Below are positions 4,282-11,341 of a DNA stretch of 64,000 nucleotides, one piece after another (position 1 is the first letter of the stretch; each line of letters starts with the position of its first letter). The position numbers and the translations under genes are program-made. The notes beneath the pieces were generated by a model. The model was not told where the DNA came from, searched no databases, and was given only the letters and a program-made list of their open reading frames with translations. Source of the DNA: a bacterium (lineage in GTDB: Bacteria > Cyanobacteriota > Vampirovibrionia > Obscuribacterales > Obscuribacteraceae); NCBI GenBank assembly GCA_018062085.1, contig JAGOSY010000012.1:1-64000 (forward strand). Reading direction: 5' to 3'.

Positions 4282-7032
4282 TTAGCTCTGGAAATTGGCT
4301 ATCAGCTTGTTGATAGCTTCTGTCTCAGCTGGCATTGCGTTAATTTCAGCTTGCACTGAATCAATTCGCTTTTGCGCCTTGTTAATTTGATTACCAAGGC
4401 GTCTGATGGCTTCAGCTCTAGGTATTTGCTTCGTGCCAAATTGAACCATATCTTGCCCTTGACCTTGGTTTTGAGGCTGATCTTGACTCTGATTTTGGGC
4501 TTGAGTCTGTAGATTGTTCAATCTGTTGGTCATTTTGTCTATATGACCTTGGGTCTCCTGCATTTCTTGATTGAGGCTATCTAAGTGCGAGCTGCTGTCT
4601 TTGGCTAGACTGGCCAGGTAAGCTGCGATGATTGGGGTCAGTTGCTTAGGATATGGTTCTTTTAGTTTGGTCACACCTTGATCGCTGTACCAGTGATGGC
4701 CGTCGGTGTAGACAATTTCACCATCAGCTTTTTTTAGGATGACATACTTGCCACTGGCATCAGCCCAGGCGCTGCTGAATAGTTCAAAGGCGCCAGCAAC
4801 TGGTGGAGCTACTTGTTCTGGTGGGCGCTCTTGTGGGTCAGGAAAGTTCTGTTCTGCTTTCTCCAGTAACATGGCTGTGTTCTGCATGTTTTGCACTTCC
4901 GAGGCATCTCGTTGACCGTTGAAGCCATTGCCTTGATTGGCGCTGGTATCATCAGAGTTACTGCCACCAGAGCTGCTGCCGTCAGAATTGTTACTGCCTT
5001 GTGAGGCTCGCCTTAGGCCATTGGCTTGCTGTCTTAACTCAGAAGAGATATGCCAGACCAAAGTAGGATTGTTAAATAGCGAAATTATTGCTTTTCCGCT
5101 CTGTTGATCAATTAGATCAGAACTATCTGCTGTTACTCGCAAATAGGCAGTGTCAGTGATTGGCATAACGGTAACGCCAGTTTGTAGAACATCTACGTCT
5201 GGGCCTAGTCTGTATGCCGATTGCAGCAAGTTACTGCTGACCGATGTGGTGGCATTGTCGCTATTGCTATTGGCCGAAGACGAATAATTGGTTGGCGTGG
5301 TCGTATCGTAATTTTGAATATTTTGATTTGAATTGTTGTAGCTATTGTTGTTGTTGTAATTATATTGCCTTGACGGATATTGATTGCCCTGGCTGTCGAC
5401 AGTTTGGTTGTTGCTGCCGAAGTTTAGATTGATAAACCCAGGACCAGTGGCGTAGTTGAGCGGGTTGTACCAGCCCCATCCACCGCCCCAGCCACCCCAG
5501 CCTCCGCCCCAACCGCCACCCCAGCCGTGATATCCCCAATGGTTCCAGTGGTCCGCTCTGGCCCATCCGCCCCAATGGCCACGATCTCTGCCCCAGCCGC
5601 CATTCCATCCTCTGTTGCCACGGTCGAATCCGCGCCCCCCGCGGTCTCCCCTGTCTCCACCTCGTCCACCATCGCCTCTGGCGCCGTCTCCACGACCTCC
5701 TCTATCGCCTCCTCGACCGCCATCTCCACGGCCGCCACCGCCTTCGTGACCTCCTCCATGTCCGCCGCCTTTGCCGTAGGCTGAGTCGGGGAAGATGAAA
5801 TTGGCGAGAATGACAACTACTGCCAGGGTTGTTATGACTCGTTTGCCCAGATTGAGAAGTGATTCCCAATCGCCGCTCCAGTCTACGAGTTTTTCTTTAA
5901 GTAAGTTTAGTTCATTGACTATGCGCAATGGCAGTTCTGATGCACGTTTGAGTAGTGTGTCTACCAGAATCTTTAAGTCGAGTGCCTCAAGGAAAGTACC
6001 AGGGTCCACGACAAAGCGTGATAACAGAAGTTTGGTTCTTTGCGGCTGTAAGCCAGGCATCAAGCTGATTACATCGTCAAATAATTCTTGCTCATTGGCA
6101 TTTCTCTCGACCGGGGCAATTATTTTCGGCATGTTCTCATAATTTGCCGTTAGTGCATTCCACTTAGTGTCCGATTCTGCCAGTGGGTCAGAGGTGGCAA
6201 GAGGTTTATCTGTTTCTAAATAGGTGAGAAAAATTGAGGAGCCATGCTCTTCTGGCTGTGATACCGCCTGTAGTTTTTCGAAGTCGGTCGGGAATAGAAA
6301 TAGGTTTTCAAAGTCTGCTAGTTCTTGGGCTTGTACGCCATGCTCGTTGGCAGTTCCAAGGAAAAATCCCCAGTCGCTGCCATAACCTAACTCACTGAAG
6401 GAAGGGATGCTAACCCTGTAGGGGCGGCTGTTGAGGCCAGCGGCACGCATGCTATTGAAGATACTCCAATAGGCATTGGGCGTGTTTGATGGCGATACAG
6501 CATTAGTGGCAAGAACGGCGCCCGACGCCATTATCGAGGCAAGCGAACGGTACCACTCCACACTGTGAAACTTGGCCCCAGCTGCATCTTTGGCCACAGT
6601 CAGGTCGACAACAATGAGGTCGTATTGCTGGCCTGATTTTTGGCATTCTTCTACAAATTGCCAGGCGTCAGTGACATGTACCGTGGTGCGATGGTCGGTT
6701 AAGCTGTTGCCGTTGAGTTGTGCAAATTCGCTTTTTGCTAAATCGAGAACTTCTGGGTCGTAGTCGACTAAATCTATATCTATCTGACCGCTATTTGTCG
6801 ATGTCAGCAGTTCCCGGGCTGTCAACCCGTCGCCGCCGCCTATAATTAGTGCTCTTAGAGCCTTCGAGGCTATCGATTCGCTGCCTGCCTGCAGGCGCTT
6901 CTCTGCCACCTTGAGGGCAGGGAGGGCTAAACCTTCGTGATAAATCTTTTCGTCACGTTGATCAAATTGCAGGTCACCGTCTATGAAAAGGGCGACAGTG
7001 CCATCTGGACGGCGGCTTACGAAGGTTGACAT
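4282..7032 (-). CDS. Spermidine-synthase-fold domain fused to membrane span and Gly/Arg/Trp-rich plus Asn/Gln-rich domain
   Basis: This 916-residue protein has an unusual layout. Residues 1-260 resemble a polyamine synthase/SAM-binding Rossmann fold: ALIIGGGDGLTARELL (GGGDG at 65-69), then VDYDPEVLDLA and YDLIVVDLTVAKDAAG. A linker follows, with a helical stretch (about 340-395), then one hydrophobic segment at about 397-414. Right after it comes a block of about 120 residues of GGGHGGGH, RGGDRG and GGWGGGWG-like repeats, then an Asn/Ser/Gln-rich region and a C-terminal coiled coil with a Gln/Asn-rich stretch. The usual spermidine synthase is about 280-300 residues and soluble. The N-terminus could make polyamines or be a catalytically altered relative. 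The Gly-rich part probably lies outside the membrane. It overlaps no neighbour and probably forms an operon with the FemAB gene. Confidence 0.7.
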   Translation of the reverse strand: MSTFVSRRPDGTVALFIDGDLQFDQRDEKIYHEGLALPALKVAEKRLQAGSESIASKALRALIIGGGDGLTARELLTSTNSGQIDIDLVDYDPEVLDLAKSEFAQLNGNSLTDHRTTVHVTDAWQFVEECQKSGQQYDLIVVDLTVAKDAAGAKFHSVEWYRSLASIMASGAVLATNAVSPSNTPNAYWSIFNSMRAAGLNSRPYRVSIPSFSELGYGSDWGFFLGTANEHGVQAQELADFENLFLFPTDFEKLQAVSQPEEHGSSIFLTYLETDKPLATSDPLAESDTKWNALTANYENMPKIIAPVERNANEQELFDDVISLMPGLQPQRTKLLLSRFVVDPGTFLEALDLKILVDTLLKRASELPLRIVNELNLLKEKLVDWSGDWESLLNLGKRVITTLAVVVILANFIFPDSAYGKGGGHGGGHEGGGGRGDGGRGGDRGGRGDGARGDGGRGGDRGDRGGRGFDRGNRGWNGGWGRDRGHWGGWARADHWNHWGYHGWGGGWGGGWGGWGGGWGWYNPLNYATGPGFINLNFGSNNQTVDSQGNQYPSRQYNYNNNNSYNNSNQNIQNYDTTTPTNYSSSANSNSDNATTSVSSNLLQSAYRLGPDVDVLQTGVTVMPITDTAYLRVTADSSDLIDQQSGKAIISLFNNPTLVWHISSELRQQANGLRRASQGSNNSDGSSSGGSNSDDTSANQGNGFNGQRDASEVQNMQNTAMLLEKAEQNFPDPQERPPEQVAPPVAGAFELFSSAWADASGKYVILKKADGEIVYTDGHHWYSDQGVTKLKEPYPKQLTPIIAAYLASLAKDSSSHLDSLNQEMQETQGHIDKMTNRLNNLQTQAQNQSQDQPQNQGQGQDMVQFGTKQIPRAEAIRRLGNQINKAQKRIDSVQAEINAMPAETEAINKLIANFQS

Positions 7033-7194: not shown

Positions 7195-8175
7195 ATGAGT
7201 TCTTTGCGTTCTTTCCAAATTATTTTGCTAGGTGGCTTTTTGCTTGTCTCCGTGCTGCCAGTCTTGGCGCTAGAGGCTGACAGTAGTCAACCTGCCGTTG
7301 TCGAACCAGTTGCGCCTGTAGCCCTTATCATCAAGAAGAGTTTGGTCAATGGTAAGGCCGGCAAAATTGCAGAGAAAAAAGACGAAAAGACAAAGGCATC
7401 CACAGAAAAAACAGCAAAAGTAAAAGTAGCAAAAGAAAAAGTCCCGTTTTACTTTAACCCCTTCAAGCGCATTGCCCACGACAGTAAAGTGATTTTGACT
7501 CCTCTGATAGAGAATGTCGGGGGGCCACTTAAGGGCACCGAAGATAATTTGAAGGCTTTGCAGAGTCCTCTGCGCAATCTGGAAGAACCTTTGACTGGTA
7601 TCCAAACTTCTGTTGGTGAGTTGAAATCACCACTAGAAGATTTGCAGAAGCCAATGGTGGAAATCAAGCAACCTATCGTCGAATTGCGCAAGCCGATTGG
7701 TGCTTTAAAACAACCGATTGCCGATTTGCGTAAGCCGTTAACTGACCTGTCAAAGCCAATTCATGAGTTGAATGTGCCAATTGATCACTTGCAGCGCAGT
7801 ATGAATTCATTGCCTAAGCCAATTGAGAGTTTAGTGCAGCCTCTAGACCAACTGAGAAAGCCTCTTGATGGTATTGCTGCCCCGTTGAACAATCTTGAGC
7901 CCAGCGTGCGCAATTTGGCACCACCGGTCAATCAATTGTCAGGTTCTGTTGATGTCTTGCAAGCGCAAGTGGCTTCGCTTGCTGGTGAGATGAAAGAATT
8001 GCGTCAGTCACTGCTTAACATCTGTGTCTATATTAGTTTAGCGATCGTACTGGGCTGTGGCATGATTTCTGGCACTTTGATTTGGCTCATTACTCACTTC
8101 GCCAGAAGCTATGATTTGACTCCTACCCAGGCCGGTCGTTATGTAGCCAATGCAGACGAAGTAATACGAAAGTAG
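7195..8175 (+). CDS. Secreted/membrane-anchored protein with heptad L-x2-P-[IL] repeats
   Basis: I do not recognise this family. The 326-residue protein starts with a hydrophobic signal-like segment (residues 7-26), followed by a Lys/Ala-rich linker (about 45-85). From about residue 95 to 255 it carries a striking seven-residue periodicity, roughly [ED]-L-x-[KQ]-P-[ILM]-x: examples are VELRKPIGALKQPI and ADLRKPLTDLSKPI. A likely transmembrane helix follows (about 275-300: VYISLAIVLGCGMISGTLIWLI), then a short tail. Leu spacing suggests a coiled coil, but a Pro in nearly every heptad would bend or break a normal helix, so an extended or left-handed rod is also possible. It is divergent from the preceding fusion gene and shares the 160-base intergenic region as promoter space. 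Confidence 0.65.
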   Translation: MSSLRSFQIILLGGFLLVSVLPVLALEADSSQPAVVEPVAPVALIIKKSLVNGKAGKIAEKKDEKTKASTEKTAKVKVAKEKVPFYFNPFKRIAHDSKVILTPLIENVGGPLKGTEDNLKALQSPLRNLEEPLTGIQTSVGELKSPLEDLQKPMVEIKQPIVELRKPIGALKQPIADLRKPLTDLSKPIHELNVPIDHLQRSMNSLPKPIESLVQPLDQLRKPLDGIAAPLNNLEPSVRNLAPPVNQLSGSVDVLQAQVASLAGEMKELRQSLLNICVYISLAIVLGCGMISGTLIWLITHFARSYDLTPTQAGRYVANADEVIRK

Positions 8176-9068: not shown

Positions 9069-9974
9069 ATGAATATTGGTTGGGGTAAGTTTGGCCAGAG
9101 CAAGTTAGACCAAACGATATTGGCATTTTCACTCTTTGTTTTGATTGCTATTGGGGTGCCTTCAGCGTCTGCCTTTATGACATTTCCCGCCGGCAACAAT
9201 ATTCATAGAGCTATTTTAGAGGAAGGTTTGAAGCCGTTTAAGCTAAGCAAGGCAAGTCTTGGATTTATGGCAAAAGGAATGGATAGTCAGGATAATCCAT
9301 TCTCAAACAAGTGGAAAATTCCTGAGCATCATGCTTGTGATAACAAAATAAAAGGTGCCTTTCTCTATATAGATGCACGAACCAGTAAGGCTGTTGAGCT
9401 GGCTGGTCGGGCAGATAGTGATTCTGATGCTTGCCGTCAGGCTCTTTATGCTTTAGGCGAGGCTATGCACACTATTCATGATTTTTACTCTCATGCTAAT
9501 TATGTAGAGTGGCTACTTTCGCAAGACAAGTCAATGGAGCCCATTGATCGTAGTGGTTCTGACATTCCTGAATCAATTCGCACTTGTTACTATTTCTATG
9601 AGAGCAGCCTCAAGCAAGAGCCATTTTTAAGTCATAAAGAAAATGTTCGCAGGCTGCTGGCTCAGCACCCAGAGCTTACTTTTCGCAGCGAAGCTGAATA
9701 TGTTGCTCGTAAACAATCGGAAGATCGACAATCGGCTCTAGACTATGCTCTCAAGCCTGGTTCGTTGCTGCATATGGAGCTCAATAAGGATAGCGTCAAG
9801 CAGCTTGAGGGGCAGGTGATGGTCGGTCGTGACGGTAAGACGCTTTTTGATCTTGCTCGTGAGATTGCAGTGAAGGACACGACAAAACAGTGGCAGATTT
9901 TTGAGGAGAAAATTAAAGCAAAATATGGTGAAAGGGCTTCAGCTATAATTGCGGCCTTGGAGAATGCCTCTTGA
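9069..9974 (+). CDS. Exported HET-C-like/zinc-dependent phospholipase C-fold protein
   Basis: An N-terminal hydrophobic segment (residues 13-33, ending PSASA) is a signal peptide. The diagnostic block is GEAMHTIHDFYSHANYVEW, with H134, H137, D138 and H142. This H-x2-H-D-x3-H arrangement is the metal-binding core of HET-C-like proteins and resembles the zinc phospholipase C/S1-P1 nuclease fold. The 301-residue length fits the core domain alone. Enzyme activity, if any, would be hydrolysis outside the cytoplasm; the substrate cannot be told from sequence. The ATG at 9069 is chosen because AAGGAAG lies 8 bases upstream; a TTG at 9063 is too close to it. The stop codon overlaps the start of the caspase-like gene by four bases, implying translational coupling. 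Confidence 0.7.
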   Translation: MNIGWGKFGQSKLDQTILAFSLFVLIAIGVPSASAFMTFPAGNNIHRAILEEGLKPFKLSKASLGFMAKGMDSQDNPFSNKWKIPEHHACDNKIKGAFLYIDARTSKAVELAGRADSDSDACRQALYALGEAMHTIHDFYSHANYVEWLLSQDKSMEPIDRSGSDIPESIRTCYYFYESSLKQEPFLSHKENVRRLLAQHPELTFRSEAEYVARKQSEDRQSALDYALKPGSLLHMELNKDSVKQLEGQVMVGRDGKTLFDLAREIAVKDTTKQWQIFEEKIKAKYGERASAIIAALENAS

Positions 9975-11341
9975 AAAAAACGTTGAATCTGCTTTTCGTA
10001 AGCGCGTGTTTAATGGTTTCTCCCGCAGCGACCGCTGTCGCCCCGGGGCCAAAGCCAGAGCCTGAGCAATTTAGTAATAGTCAATCTGCTGTTTCTGGCT
10101 CTGCTTCAGCTCTTGGTTCGGTGGCTAGCTCGGTCACTAGTCAGGTGGCTGCTCCGGTAGCTGATAAGTGGGCCTTGATTGTCGGTATAAGTAAGTTCAA
10201 AGATGAGAAAGTCAACCTCAAGTTCGCTGCCAAAGATGCCACTGATTTTGCAAATTTCTTGATCAAACATGAGAATTTTGCAGCAGATCACGTACTACTT
10301 TTAACTGACGATAAAGCTACTCGCAAGAATATTCTTGAGTCTTTGGGCAGCAAATGGCTGCCGCGGCTGGCTATGCCGTCTGATCTTGTCGTGCTTTATT
10401 TTTCAACCCATGGCAGCCCTTCTGATATTGATGAAGGCGGTGTCAATTATTTGATTGCCCATGATACTGAAGTCGACAATTTATATGCTACTGGTATTCC
10501 AATGCAAGATCTGGTTCGTATGATCAAGGGCCGTGTGCATTCAGATCGAATTGTTATTTTCTTAGATGCTTGTCATAGTGGCGCCACTACTGCTGATGGC
10601 AAAGGTATCGTACGGGTGAGTAATATTGATGCTGATGAAGTCGTTCAAGGCACTGGGCAATTGGTAATTTCTTCTAGTGCACCTAATGAGCGATCTTGGG
10701 AGTCTAAGAATGATACTAATGGCGTTTTTACGAAGCATTTGATTTCTGCACTTTCTAAAGATGGTGCAGCAACTACATTAGGCAATGCCTTTGTCGCCTT
10801 AAAGCAAGACGTGCAGGCTGAGGTGCTGAGAGACCGGGCACAGTTGCAGACACCGGTGTTGCGTAGTAAGTGGCAAGGTGCTGATTTGGCTCTGGCTCTT
10901 CCGCCGACTAAGCCGAGGCAATCACTGCCTTTCGAGGCGGCTAGCGATGACCTCCCGGTCAGCGATGCTAGTGTTTCGAAGCCAGCCACTGCGTCCTCAA
11001 CCTCTGCAAGCTCTGGAACTTCGGCTGTCTTTAGTAAAGGTGTTGATGGTCAGTGGGATTCCAACTGGGGCAAAGTCACTCTTGTGCATGGCGCGATAGT
11101 GGGTGATAAGCCTGTGAAAGTCACAGGCTATTGGATTCAAGATGCAGACAAGAACCGAGGTGTGTTTCGCTCTGGGTCTTTCGATCCTAAAACTGGTTTG
11201 CTAAAGTTGACTTACTGGCAGAATTGGAATCTGATGCTAGGTAAGGCTACTTTTAAAATGAGCACAGATGGAAAACGCATGGAAGGCTCGTGGAAACATT
11301 TTGGTGTTGCTGGTGACCCTTGGATTATCTGGCGTCCTTAG
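9971..11341 (+). CDS. Exported caspase-fold (C14, metacaspase-like) protease with C-terminal beta domain
   Basis: This 456-residue protein begins at a TTG overlapping the previous stop (TTGA). It has a signal peptide (residues 1-22, ending ATA) and a Ser/Ala-rich linker. The caspase-like p20 region spans about 65-300: WALIVGISKF, then VLYFSTHGSP with catalytic His147, and IVIFLDACHSGA with catalytic Cys201. The block VISSSAPNERSWE ... GVFTKHLISAL is also typical. A second Ser/Thr-rich linker leads to a C-terminal domain (about 355-456) with the patterns GQWDSNWGKVTL and GKRMEGSWK, which looks like an antiparallel beta fold found at the ends of many exported bacterial proteins. Both His and Cys are present, so activity is plausible. 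Caspase-like proteins of this type prefer basic or acidic P1 residues depending on family; this cannot be read here. Confidence 0.85.
   Translation: MKKTLNLLFVSACLMVSPAATAVAPGPKPEPEQFSNSQSAVSGSASALGSVASSVTSQVAAPVADKWALIVGISKFKDEKVNLKFAAKDATDFANFLIKHENFAADHVLLLTDDKATRKNILESLGSKWLPRLAMPSDLVVLYFSTHGSPSDIDEGGVNYLIAHDTEVDNLYATGIPMQDLVRMIKGRVHSDRIVIFLDACHSGATTADGKGIVRVSNIDADEVVQGTGQLVISSSAPNERSWESKNDTNGVFTKHLISALSKDGAATTLGNAFVALKQDVQAEVLRDRAQLQTPVLRSKWQGADLALALPPTKPRQSLPFEAASDDLPVSDASVSKPATASSTSASSGTSAVFSKGVDGQWDSNWGKVTLVHGAIVGDKPVKVTGYWIQDADKNRGVFRSGSFDPKTGLLKLTYWQNWNLMLGKATFKMSTDGKRMEGSWKHFGVAGDPWIIWRP

What the first reader, a model, noticed from the sequence alone, without database searches (positions are those of the whole stretch)
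9069..11341. Coupled secreted HET-C-like protein and caspase-fold protease
The two genes overlap by four bases (TTGA), both products have signal peptides, and both keep metal or catalytic residues. HET-C-like domains and caspase-like proteases are each linked to programmed cell death or incompatibility in fungi and to bacterial conflict systems. A translationally coupled, exported pair could be a lytic, nutrient-acquisition or intercellular antagonism system. Proteolytic activation of one by the other is possible.
Basis: partly seen in the sequence, partly recalled or inferred. Interest (0 to 1): 0.75.

Follow-up and report, generated by a model that had tools for sequence, protein, structure and literature searches.

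The report
Exported Het-C hydrolase with caspase partner
Two overlapping genes in a non-photosynthetic relative of cyanobacteria encode an exported metal-enzyme-like protein of the Het-C family and an exported caspase-type protease; the pairing is real and occurs in two genera, but it is rare, it has been lost once, and whether one enzyme controls the other is unknown.

Summary
A 301-aa Het-C/VWA7_N-type protein (9069-9974 +) and a 456-aa caspase-fold protease (9971-11341 +, TTG start) overlap by TTGA. Both begin with signal-peptide-like sequences. The caspase dyad H147/C201 is intact. In a 50-genome family census, 9 genomes hold a ligand-complete Het-C gene. The pair is intact in 3 (two genera, always a 4-base overlap) and decayed in 1, where the caspase carries two deletions while Het-C is still constrained. 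It is absent in 4 and unreadable in 1. Paired proteins carry private marks: a C-terminal caspase domain (3 of 43 caspases, plus one contig-end fragment) and 22 private Het-C residues. The catalytic domains of the paired caspases are not one clade (AU p 0.001), so partners were swapped or recruited more than once. Exported caspases are very common here (19 in this genome). Best reading: a coupled exported hydrolase-protease module acting outside the cytoplasm. Proteolytic activation is possible but not shown, and is not obligatory. No programmed-cell-death evidence. A new variant of a known kind.

The parts
9069..9974 (+). Het-C/VWA7_N-type exported protein, 301 aa
   Evidence: Het-C and VWA7_N match in 8 of 8 aligned members
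9069..9173 (+). predicted Sec signal peptide (aa 1-35), ending ..SASA before F36
   Evidence: A35-F36 invariant in 8 of 8; read from sequence, no predictor run
9174..9176 (+). F36, predicted mature N-terminus; inferred counterpart of the N-terminal Trp metal ligand of PLC/P1 nucleases
   Evidence: S1-P1 relatives show A before W at the same place; the ligand role of that Trp is recalled, not tested
9204..9206 (+). H46, predicted ligand
   Evidence: invariant
9291..9332 (+). D75 and H88, predicted ligands
   Evidence: invariant
9468..9509 (+). H134xxxD138xxxH142, N144xxE147 core motif
   Evidence: invariant in A3; equals the published Het-C motif HxxxDxxxH, Nxx[DE] (PMC3482391 passages)
9771..9791 (+). 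H235-x-E-L-N-K-D241 motif
   Evidence: H235, L238, N239, K240, D241 invariant in A3
9959..9962 (+). GGAG, possible ribosome-binding site for the caspase inside the Het-C gene
   Evidence: present in G000, G001, G005; not in G015
9971..9974 (+). four-base stop/start overlap TTGA
   Evidence: 4-base overlap also in G001 and G015
9971..11341 (+). exported caspase-fold (metacaspase/orthocaspase-type, C14) protease, 456 aa
9971..10039 (+). predicted signal peptide (aa 1-23)
   Evidence: read from sequence; crude hydrophobicity
10166..10867 (+). caspase domain
   Evidence: PF00656
10409..10411 (+). catalytic His147
   Evidence: invariant in 3 of 3 paired caspases
10571..10573 (+). catalytic Cys201 (DACHSG)
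   Evidence: invariant in 3 of 3 paired caspases
11036..11338 (+). C-terminal domain (aa 356-456), probably all-beta, private to the paired caspases among caspases examined; no Pfam match
   Evidence: beta prediction from a low-confidence model

Best explanation
The locus is a two-gene operon for an exported enzyme pair. Shown by sequence: the Het-C-type protein has an export-like signal and a complete set of conserved His/Asp/Glu residues; the caspase has an export-like signal, an intact dyad and an extra C-terminal domain; the genes overlap, so one mRNA most likely makes both. Inferred: signal peptidase cuts before F36, whose free amino group, with H46, D75, H88, H134, D138, H142 and H235, completes a metal site like that of zinc phospholipase C and S1/P1 nuclease, so the protein hydrolyses phospholipid or nucleic-acid phosphodiesters outside the cytoplasm. 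The caspase, a Lys/Arg-type protease by family, acts in the same compartment, most likely on the same target material (envelopes, debris or competitors), and possibly also trims the Het-C protein. The pair is an accessory module, not an essential or obligate one: the Het-C gene persists where the caspase is gone.
For: Intact pair with a 4-base overlap in 2 genera, 35-37% (Het-C) and 46-51% (caspase) identical. dN/dS about 0.10 for Het-C and 0.107 for the caspase (dS near saturation). Invariant ligand set and A-F cleavage junction equal, with two small differences, to the published Tox-HET-C signature, whose authors predicted kinship with phospholipase C and S1-P1 nuclease (PMC3482391 passages). 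Private C-terminal domain on the paired caspases: 3 of 43 caspase ORFs plus the G020 contig-end fragment, a clade at 81/88. Paired Het-Cs share 22 private residues, 11 of them in aa 148-232, against 8, 8, 13 and 9 (0, 1, 5, 3) when another relative takes G015's place. Het-C kept in G005 after caspase loss.
Against: No enzyme activity is known for this family member. Profile comparison with S1-P1 nucleases was not significant (probability 0.8% and 1.8%). The AlphaFold models were useless (pLDDT 43 and 34), so the metal site and fold are untested. The pair is absent from 4 readable genomes with a ligand-complete Het-C. The paired caspases' catalytic domains are not one clade, which may mean loose partnership.
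Confidence: 0.5

Rival explanations
1. Protease-activated effector: the caspase cuts the Het-C protein (for example in the variable insert between E147 and H235), turning an inactive exported hydrolase into an active membrane- or cell-killing enzyme, in the manner of caspase-processed gasdermins or caspase-released Sec-exported toxins.
For: Coupled genes; both exported; private paired-specific residues cluster in the 148-232 insert; caspase-like domains are described as processing peptidases in Sec-dependent toxin proteins (PMC3482391 passages) and protease-gasdermin two-gene clusters are known (PMC10197012 passages).
Against: G005 keeps a constrained Het-C gene with the caspase deleted; four readable genomes have ligand-complete Het-C with no caspase nearby; caspase catalytic domains of the two paired lineages differ.
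Confidence: 0.2
2. Two independently acting exported enzymes that share an operon only because one of many exported caspases was inserted or recruited behind a Het-C gene; no functional link.
For: About 20 caspases per genome make chance neighbours less unlikely; other caspases also sit behind unrelated secreted proteins or a kinase; partner lost in G005; catalytic domains polyphyletic.
Against: Recurrence in two genera with an exact 4-base overlap, and private domain and residues on both partners. With about 0.4% of genes being caspases (my estimate: 19 per roughly 5,000 genes, gene number not counted) chance recurrence is unlikely.
Confidence: 0.2
3. Self-directed programmed lysis or incompatibility: the pair kills its own or related cells in the way fungal het-c mediates heterokaryon incompatibility.
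For: Family names only; Het-C was first found in fungal incompatibility and a Pseudomonas version acts on fungi (PMC3482391 passages).
Against: No immunity gene found, dN/dS about 0.1, export signals, and about 20 caspases per genome without Het-C beside them. Allelic diversification was not tested.
Confidence: 0.06
4. Intercellular antagonism with a Het-C toxin (Tox-HET-C) of the polymorphic-toxin kind.
For: Same motif as Tox-HET-C; Het-C fused to very long repeat-like proteins in relatives G012 and G025.
Against: No repeat region, no delivery domain, no conserved immunity gene beside the pair (flanks differ in G015), no variable toxin cassette.
Confidence: 0.12

Closest known systems
Het-C domain (Pfam PF07217) / Tox-HET-C of Zhang et al. 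2012 (PMC3482391)
   Same: H, [DE], HxxxDxxxH, Nxx[DE] and [ST]G-type positions; exported; Pfam score just over the cut-off
   Different: short stand-alone protein; [ST]G is TC in the paired members; no toxin-delivery architecture; partner is a separate caspase gene
VWA7 N-terminal domain (PF25107)
   Same: match in 8 of 8 members, best E 2.5e-11; relatives in other families of the phylum also match
   Different: no von Willebrand domain in the window's protein; window protein itself 1.1 bits under the cut-off
Zinc phospholipase C / S1-P1 nuclease superfamily
   Same: order of ligands, small residue at the signal cut followed by an aromatic mature N-terminus (ligand roles recalled)
   Different: no significant profile match; spacing D138 to H142 is 4, against 6 between D and the second conserved H in the S1-P1 relatives
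Bacterial metacaspases/orthocaspases (C14B)
   Same: p20-type caspase domain, H147/C201, DACHSG; nearest solved chains are metacaspases
   Different: signal peptide and a private C-terminal domain; member of a lineage-specific expansion of exported caspases
Gasdermin-protease two-gene clusters
   Same: effector gene beside a caspase-related protease gene (PMC10197012 passages)
   Different: Het-C is not a gasdermin, both products are exported, and no cleavage is shown

Membership tests
Het-C / Tox-HET-C | Pfam PF07217 over its curated cut-off | tested here: met
   21.3 bits against 21, aa 115-151 only; narrow
Het-C / Tox-HET-C | motif H, [DE], HxD, HxxxDxxxH, Nxx[DE], [ST]G | tested here: met
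   H46, D75, H88 (HxxD here), H134xxxD138xxxH142, N144xxE147, T172 followed by C; two positions differ in detail
Het-C / Tox-HET-C | phospholipase/nuclease or cell-killing activity | not testable with these tools
   no assay; published only as a prediction for the domain in the passages seen
PLC/S1-P1 nuclease superfamily | profile similarity to S1-P1 nucleases | tested here: not met
   hhalign probability 0.8% and 1.8%
PLC/S1-P1 nuclease superfamily | common all-alpha fold with trinuclear metal site | tested here: inconclusive
   model pLDDT 43
Metacaspase/orthocaspase (C14) | caspase domain with His-Cys dyad | tested here: met
   PF00656 84.2 bits; H147, C201
Metacaspase/orthocaspase (C14) | Arg/Lys P1 specificity | not testable with these tools
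   family property from the start of an abstract (PMC6426788, search listing)
Polymorphic toxin system | N-terminal delivery region, variable C-terminal toxin, immunity gene next door | tested here: not met
   neither gene has a repeat or delivery region; flanks not conserved in G015; no neighbour shared by 3 or more of 6 loci
Known anti-phage defence system with caspase | match of both genes to defence models | tested here: not met
   PADLOC: caspase model only for the protease, nothing for Het-C

The most novel reading that the evidence does not exclude
A bacterial extracellular 'caspase plus Het-C' module: an exported caspase matures or unleashes a co-secreted Het-C phospholipase/nuclease outside the cell, one member of a wider system in which about 20 exported caspases per genome are each teamed with a different partner (kinase, ricin-B-like lectin, unknown secreted proteins) in these non-photosynthetic relatives of cyanobacteria.
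Probability: 0.15. Interest if true: 0.72.

Novelty: new variant of a known kind. Interest (0 to 1): 0.42.

Why it matters
Het-C proteins are known from fungal incompatibility, but their enzyme activity was only a prediction in the papers seen here, and bacterial metacaspases mostly lack known substrates (recalled). A conserved co-translated pair gives a specific protease and candidate substrate that can be tested in vitro. The family-wide expansion of exported caspases is itself a little-described trait that may explain how these bacteria process their surface or environment.

Tried and rejected

Rows dropped: the two L121 caspase domains were left out of the clade test as long rows (the first tree, held them); L115 and short or weak domains failed the score or length filter in both. 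Caspases from other genomes were chosen by me from the listing, not at random. Only 12 loci of the C-terminal domain were fetched, of 31 listed matches in 19 of 50 genomes, and 11 rows were used in the tree. The Het-C tree held 15 chosen rows.

Literature: nothing on a Het-C-caspase bacterial pair in searches (open-licence PMC only). Passages read: PMC3482391, PMC10197012. Other papers: search listings only.

Full report
What is there. The window is part of a 5.83 Mb, 80-contig genome. A relative's contig at the same locus is titled 'Cyanobacteriota bacterium' (L040); a home in Obscuribacteraceae is my inference from memory and was not tested. At 9069-9974 (+) lies a 301-aa protein with weak but sufficient Het-C similarity (21.3 bits, cut-off 21) and VWA7_N similarity just below its cut-off. 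At 9971-11341 (+) lies a 456-aa caspase-fold protease starting with TTG. The four shared bases are TTGA.

The Het-C protein. Eight ligand-complete relatives were aligned. Invariant are A35-F36, H46, D75, H88, H134, D138, H142, N144, E147, T172, H235, N239, K240 and D241, among others. This equals, with two small differences, the Tox-HET-C signature H, [DE], HxD, HxxxDxxxH, Nxx[DE], [ST]G given by Zhang et al. 2012, who predicted from a borderline profile match that Het-C shares the active site of zinc phospholipase C and S1-P1 nuclease (PMC3482391, passages). The invariant A-F pair sits where signal peptidase should cut. In S1-P1 nucleases fetched from the same phylum, including one in this genome, the same place reads A-W. 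In those enzymes the N-terminal Trp is a metal ligand (recalled). I therefore infer that F36 is the mature N-terminus and completes the site. A profile comparison with VWA7_N-like proteins of other families of the class gave 99% probability.

The caspase. It matches PF00656 at 84 bits, with H147 and C201 intact. This genome has 19 PF00656 places. Of 40 genomes searched with the window's caspase (this one included), 21 have matches at E 1e-40 or better, up to 22 per genome. Of 42 caspase ORFs scored crudely, 35 begin with a signal-like hydrophobic stretch. So an exported caspase is ordinary for this lineage. What is special is its C-terminal domain (aa 356-456). Of 43 caspase ORFs examined, only the 3 paired ones carry it, plus a caspase cut off at a contig end in G020. 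The domain also occurs in other, non-caspase secreted proteins; 19 of 50 family genomes have a match. The caspase-borne copies form a clade at 81/88.

Is the pair conserved? In the family census (50 genomes) a full-length ligand-complete Het-C gene was found in 8, and in two contig pieces in a ninth (G004). The intact pair with a 4-base overlap is in G000, G001 and G015; G015 belongs to another genus, its Het-C is 35-37% identical, and its flanking genes differ. Its overlap is ATGA instead of TTGA. In G005, at the same locus with the same flanks, the caspase has lost two internal stretches. About 43 codons and the ends survive, with 4 synonymous and 6 non-synonymous changes on that branch. Its Het-C gene is intact, with 12 synonymous and 5 non-synonymous changes on the same branch. 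No caspase lies near the Het-C genes of G012, G019, G002 or G004 (G004 assumes that the two pieces are one gene). In G025 the gene runs off the contig, so its downstream side cannot be read. In a draw of 386 genomes of the phylum, only 9, this one included, had any match at E 1e-10, and none of the other 8 fetched had a caspase beside it; fetched flanks were only about 1.5 kb or less there.

History. The paired Het-Cs, with the G005 one, form a weakly supported clade (74/81). They share 22 private residues, 11 of them in the insert between E147 and H235; putting any of the other four relatives in G015's place gives 8 to 13 (0 to 5 in the insert). The caspase catalytic domains behave otherwise: G000/G001 join an unpaired caspase of G012, and a clade of the three paired caspases is rejected (p-AU 0.00102). 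Neither half of the domain joins the three. The simplest account is an old pair whose catalytic domain was exchanged with a paralogue in one lineage; recruitment twice is the alternative. Either way selection seems to keep 'some exported caspase with this C-terminal domain' behind this Het-C type.

How it works. My best reading is an exported hydrolase-protease module acting outside the cytoplasm on polymers, envelopes or competitors, with optional trimming of Het-C by the caspase (confidence 0.5 for the module, 0.2 for activation as the main point). Shown: gene order, overlap, intact active-site residues, export-like N-termini, conservation, constraint. Inferred: metal site, substrates, compartment, joint action. 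Not supported: programmed cell death. Its only support is the family names, while the genome is full of caspases.

Novelty. Each part is a known kind; the two-gene combination was not found in print in the open-licence library. I call it a new variant of a known kind. Het-C and caspase domains are both listed among exported toxin-related domains, and caspase-like domains as processing peptidases, in PMC3482391, so the combination is foreseeable but not described there in the passages seen.

A wider pattern. Other exported caspases here also follow other genes closely: a protein kinase in G000 and a similarly placed gene of like length in G015, a small secreted protein in G000 (weak ricin-B-lectin match, gap 37) and in G015 (gap -1, no Pfam match), and unknown secreted proteins in G010 (4-base overlap), G004 and G015. 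The window's pair may be one instance of a general arrangement, which is the boldest reading that I leave open.

Noticed in passing
own genome, 19 places including window 10166-10867; L112-L126: Large family of caspase proteins, most with signal-peptide-like starts (35 of 42 ORFs scored over several genomes), some with long N-terminal regions; a striking expansion of exported caspases in this bacterial family.
   Followed up: partly
L114:1310-4861 and L134:2990-6493: Ser/Thr protein kinase gene (Pfam in L114) directly upstream (39 bases) of a caspase; in G015 (L134) a gene of like length lies 36 bases upstream of the related caspase (its Pfam content was not scanned).
   Followed up: no
L123:4024-6007 and L136:1828-3731: Small secreted protein (weak ricin-B-lectin match in G000 only) directly upstream of a caspase gene, in two genera.
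   Followed up: no
L046-L056, L059, L060 (e.g. L046:7689-8462); L048 in this genome: Second Het-C-like paralogue, widespread in the family at one syntenic place beside a DnaQ-like exonuclease gene and a ThiF/MoeB-like gene (names from reading the sequence), with several predicted ligands lost (H142 often R or N, H235 often missing); perhaps a non-catalytic relative.
   Followed up: partly
L041:5314-11658 and L042:1-3336: Ligand-complete Het-C domain at the N-terminus of a 2114-aa protein (and of a 1112-aa fragment cut at a contig end) with long repeat-like regions.
   Followed up: partly
window 4282-7032 (-): Spermine-synthase domain followed in the same frame by a glycine-rich region and a coiled-coil-like tail, 916 aa; unusual fusion, similar in G005.
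   Followed up: no
window 7195-8175 (+): Exported-looking protein with many copies of a short repeat of the type L-x-x-P-[IL] and a C-terminal transmembrane-like stretch.
   Followed up: no
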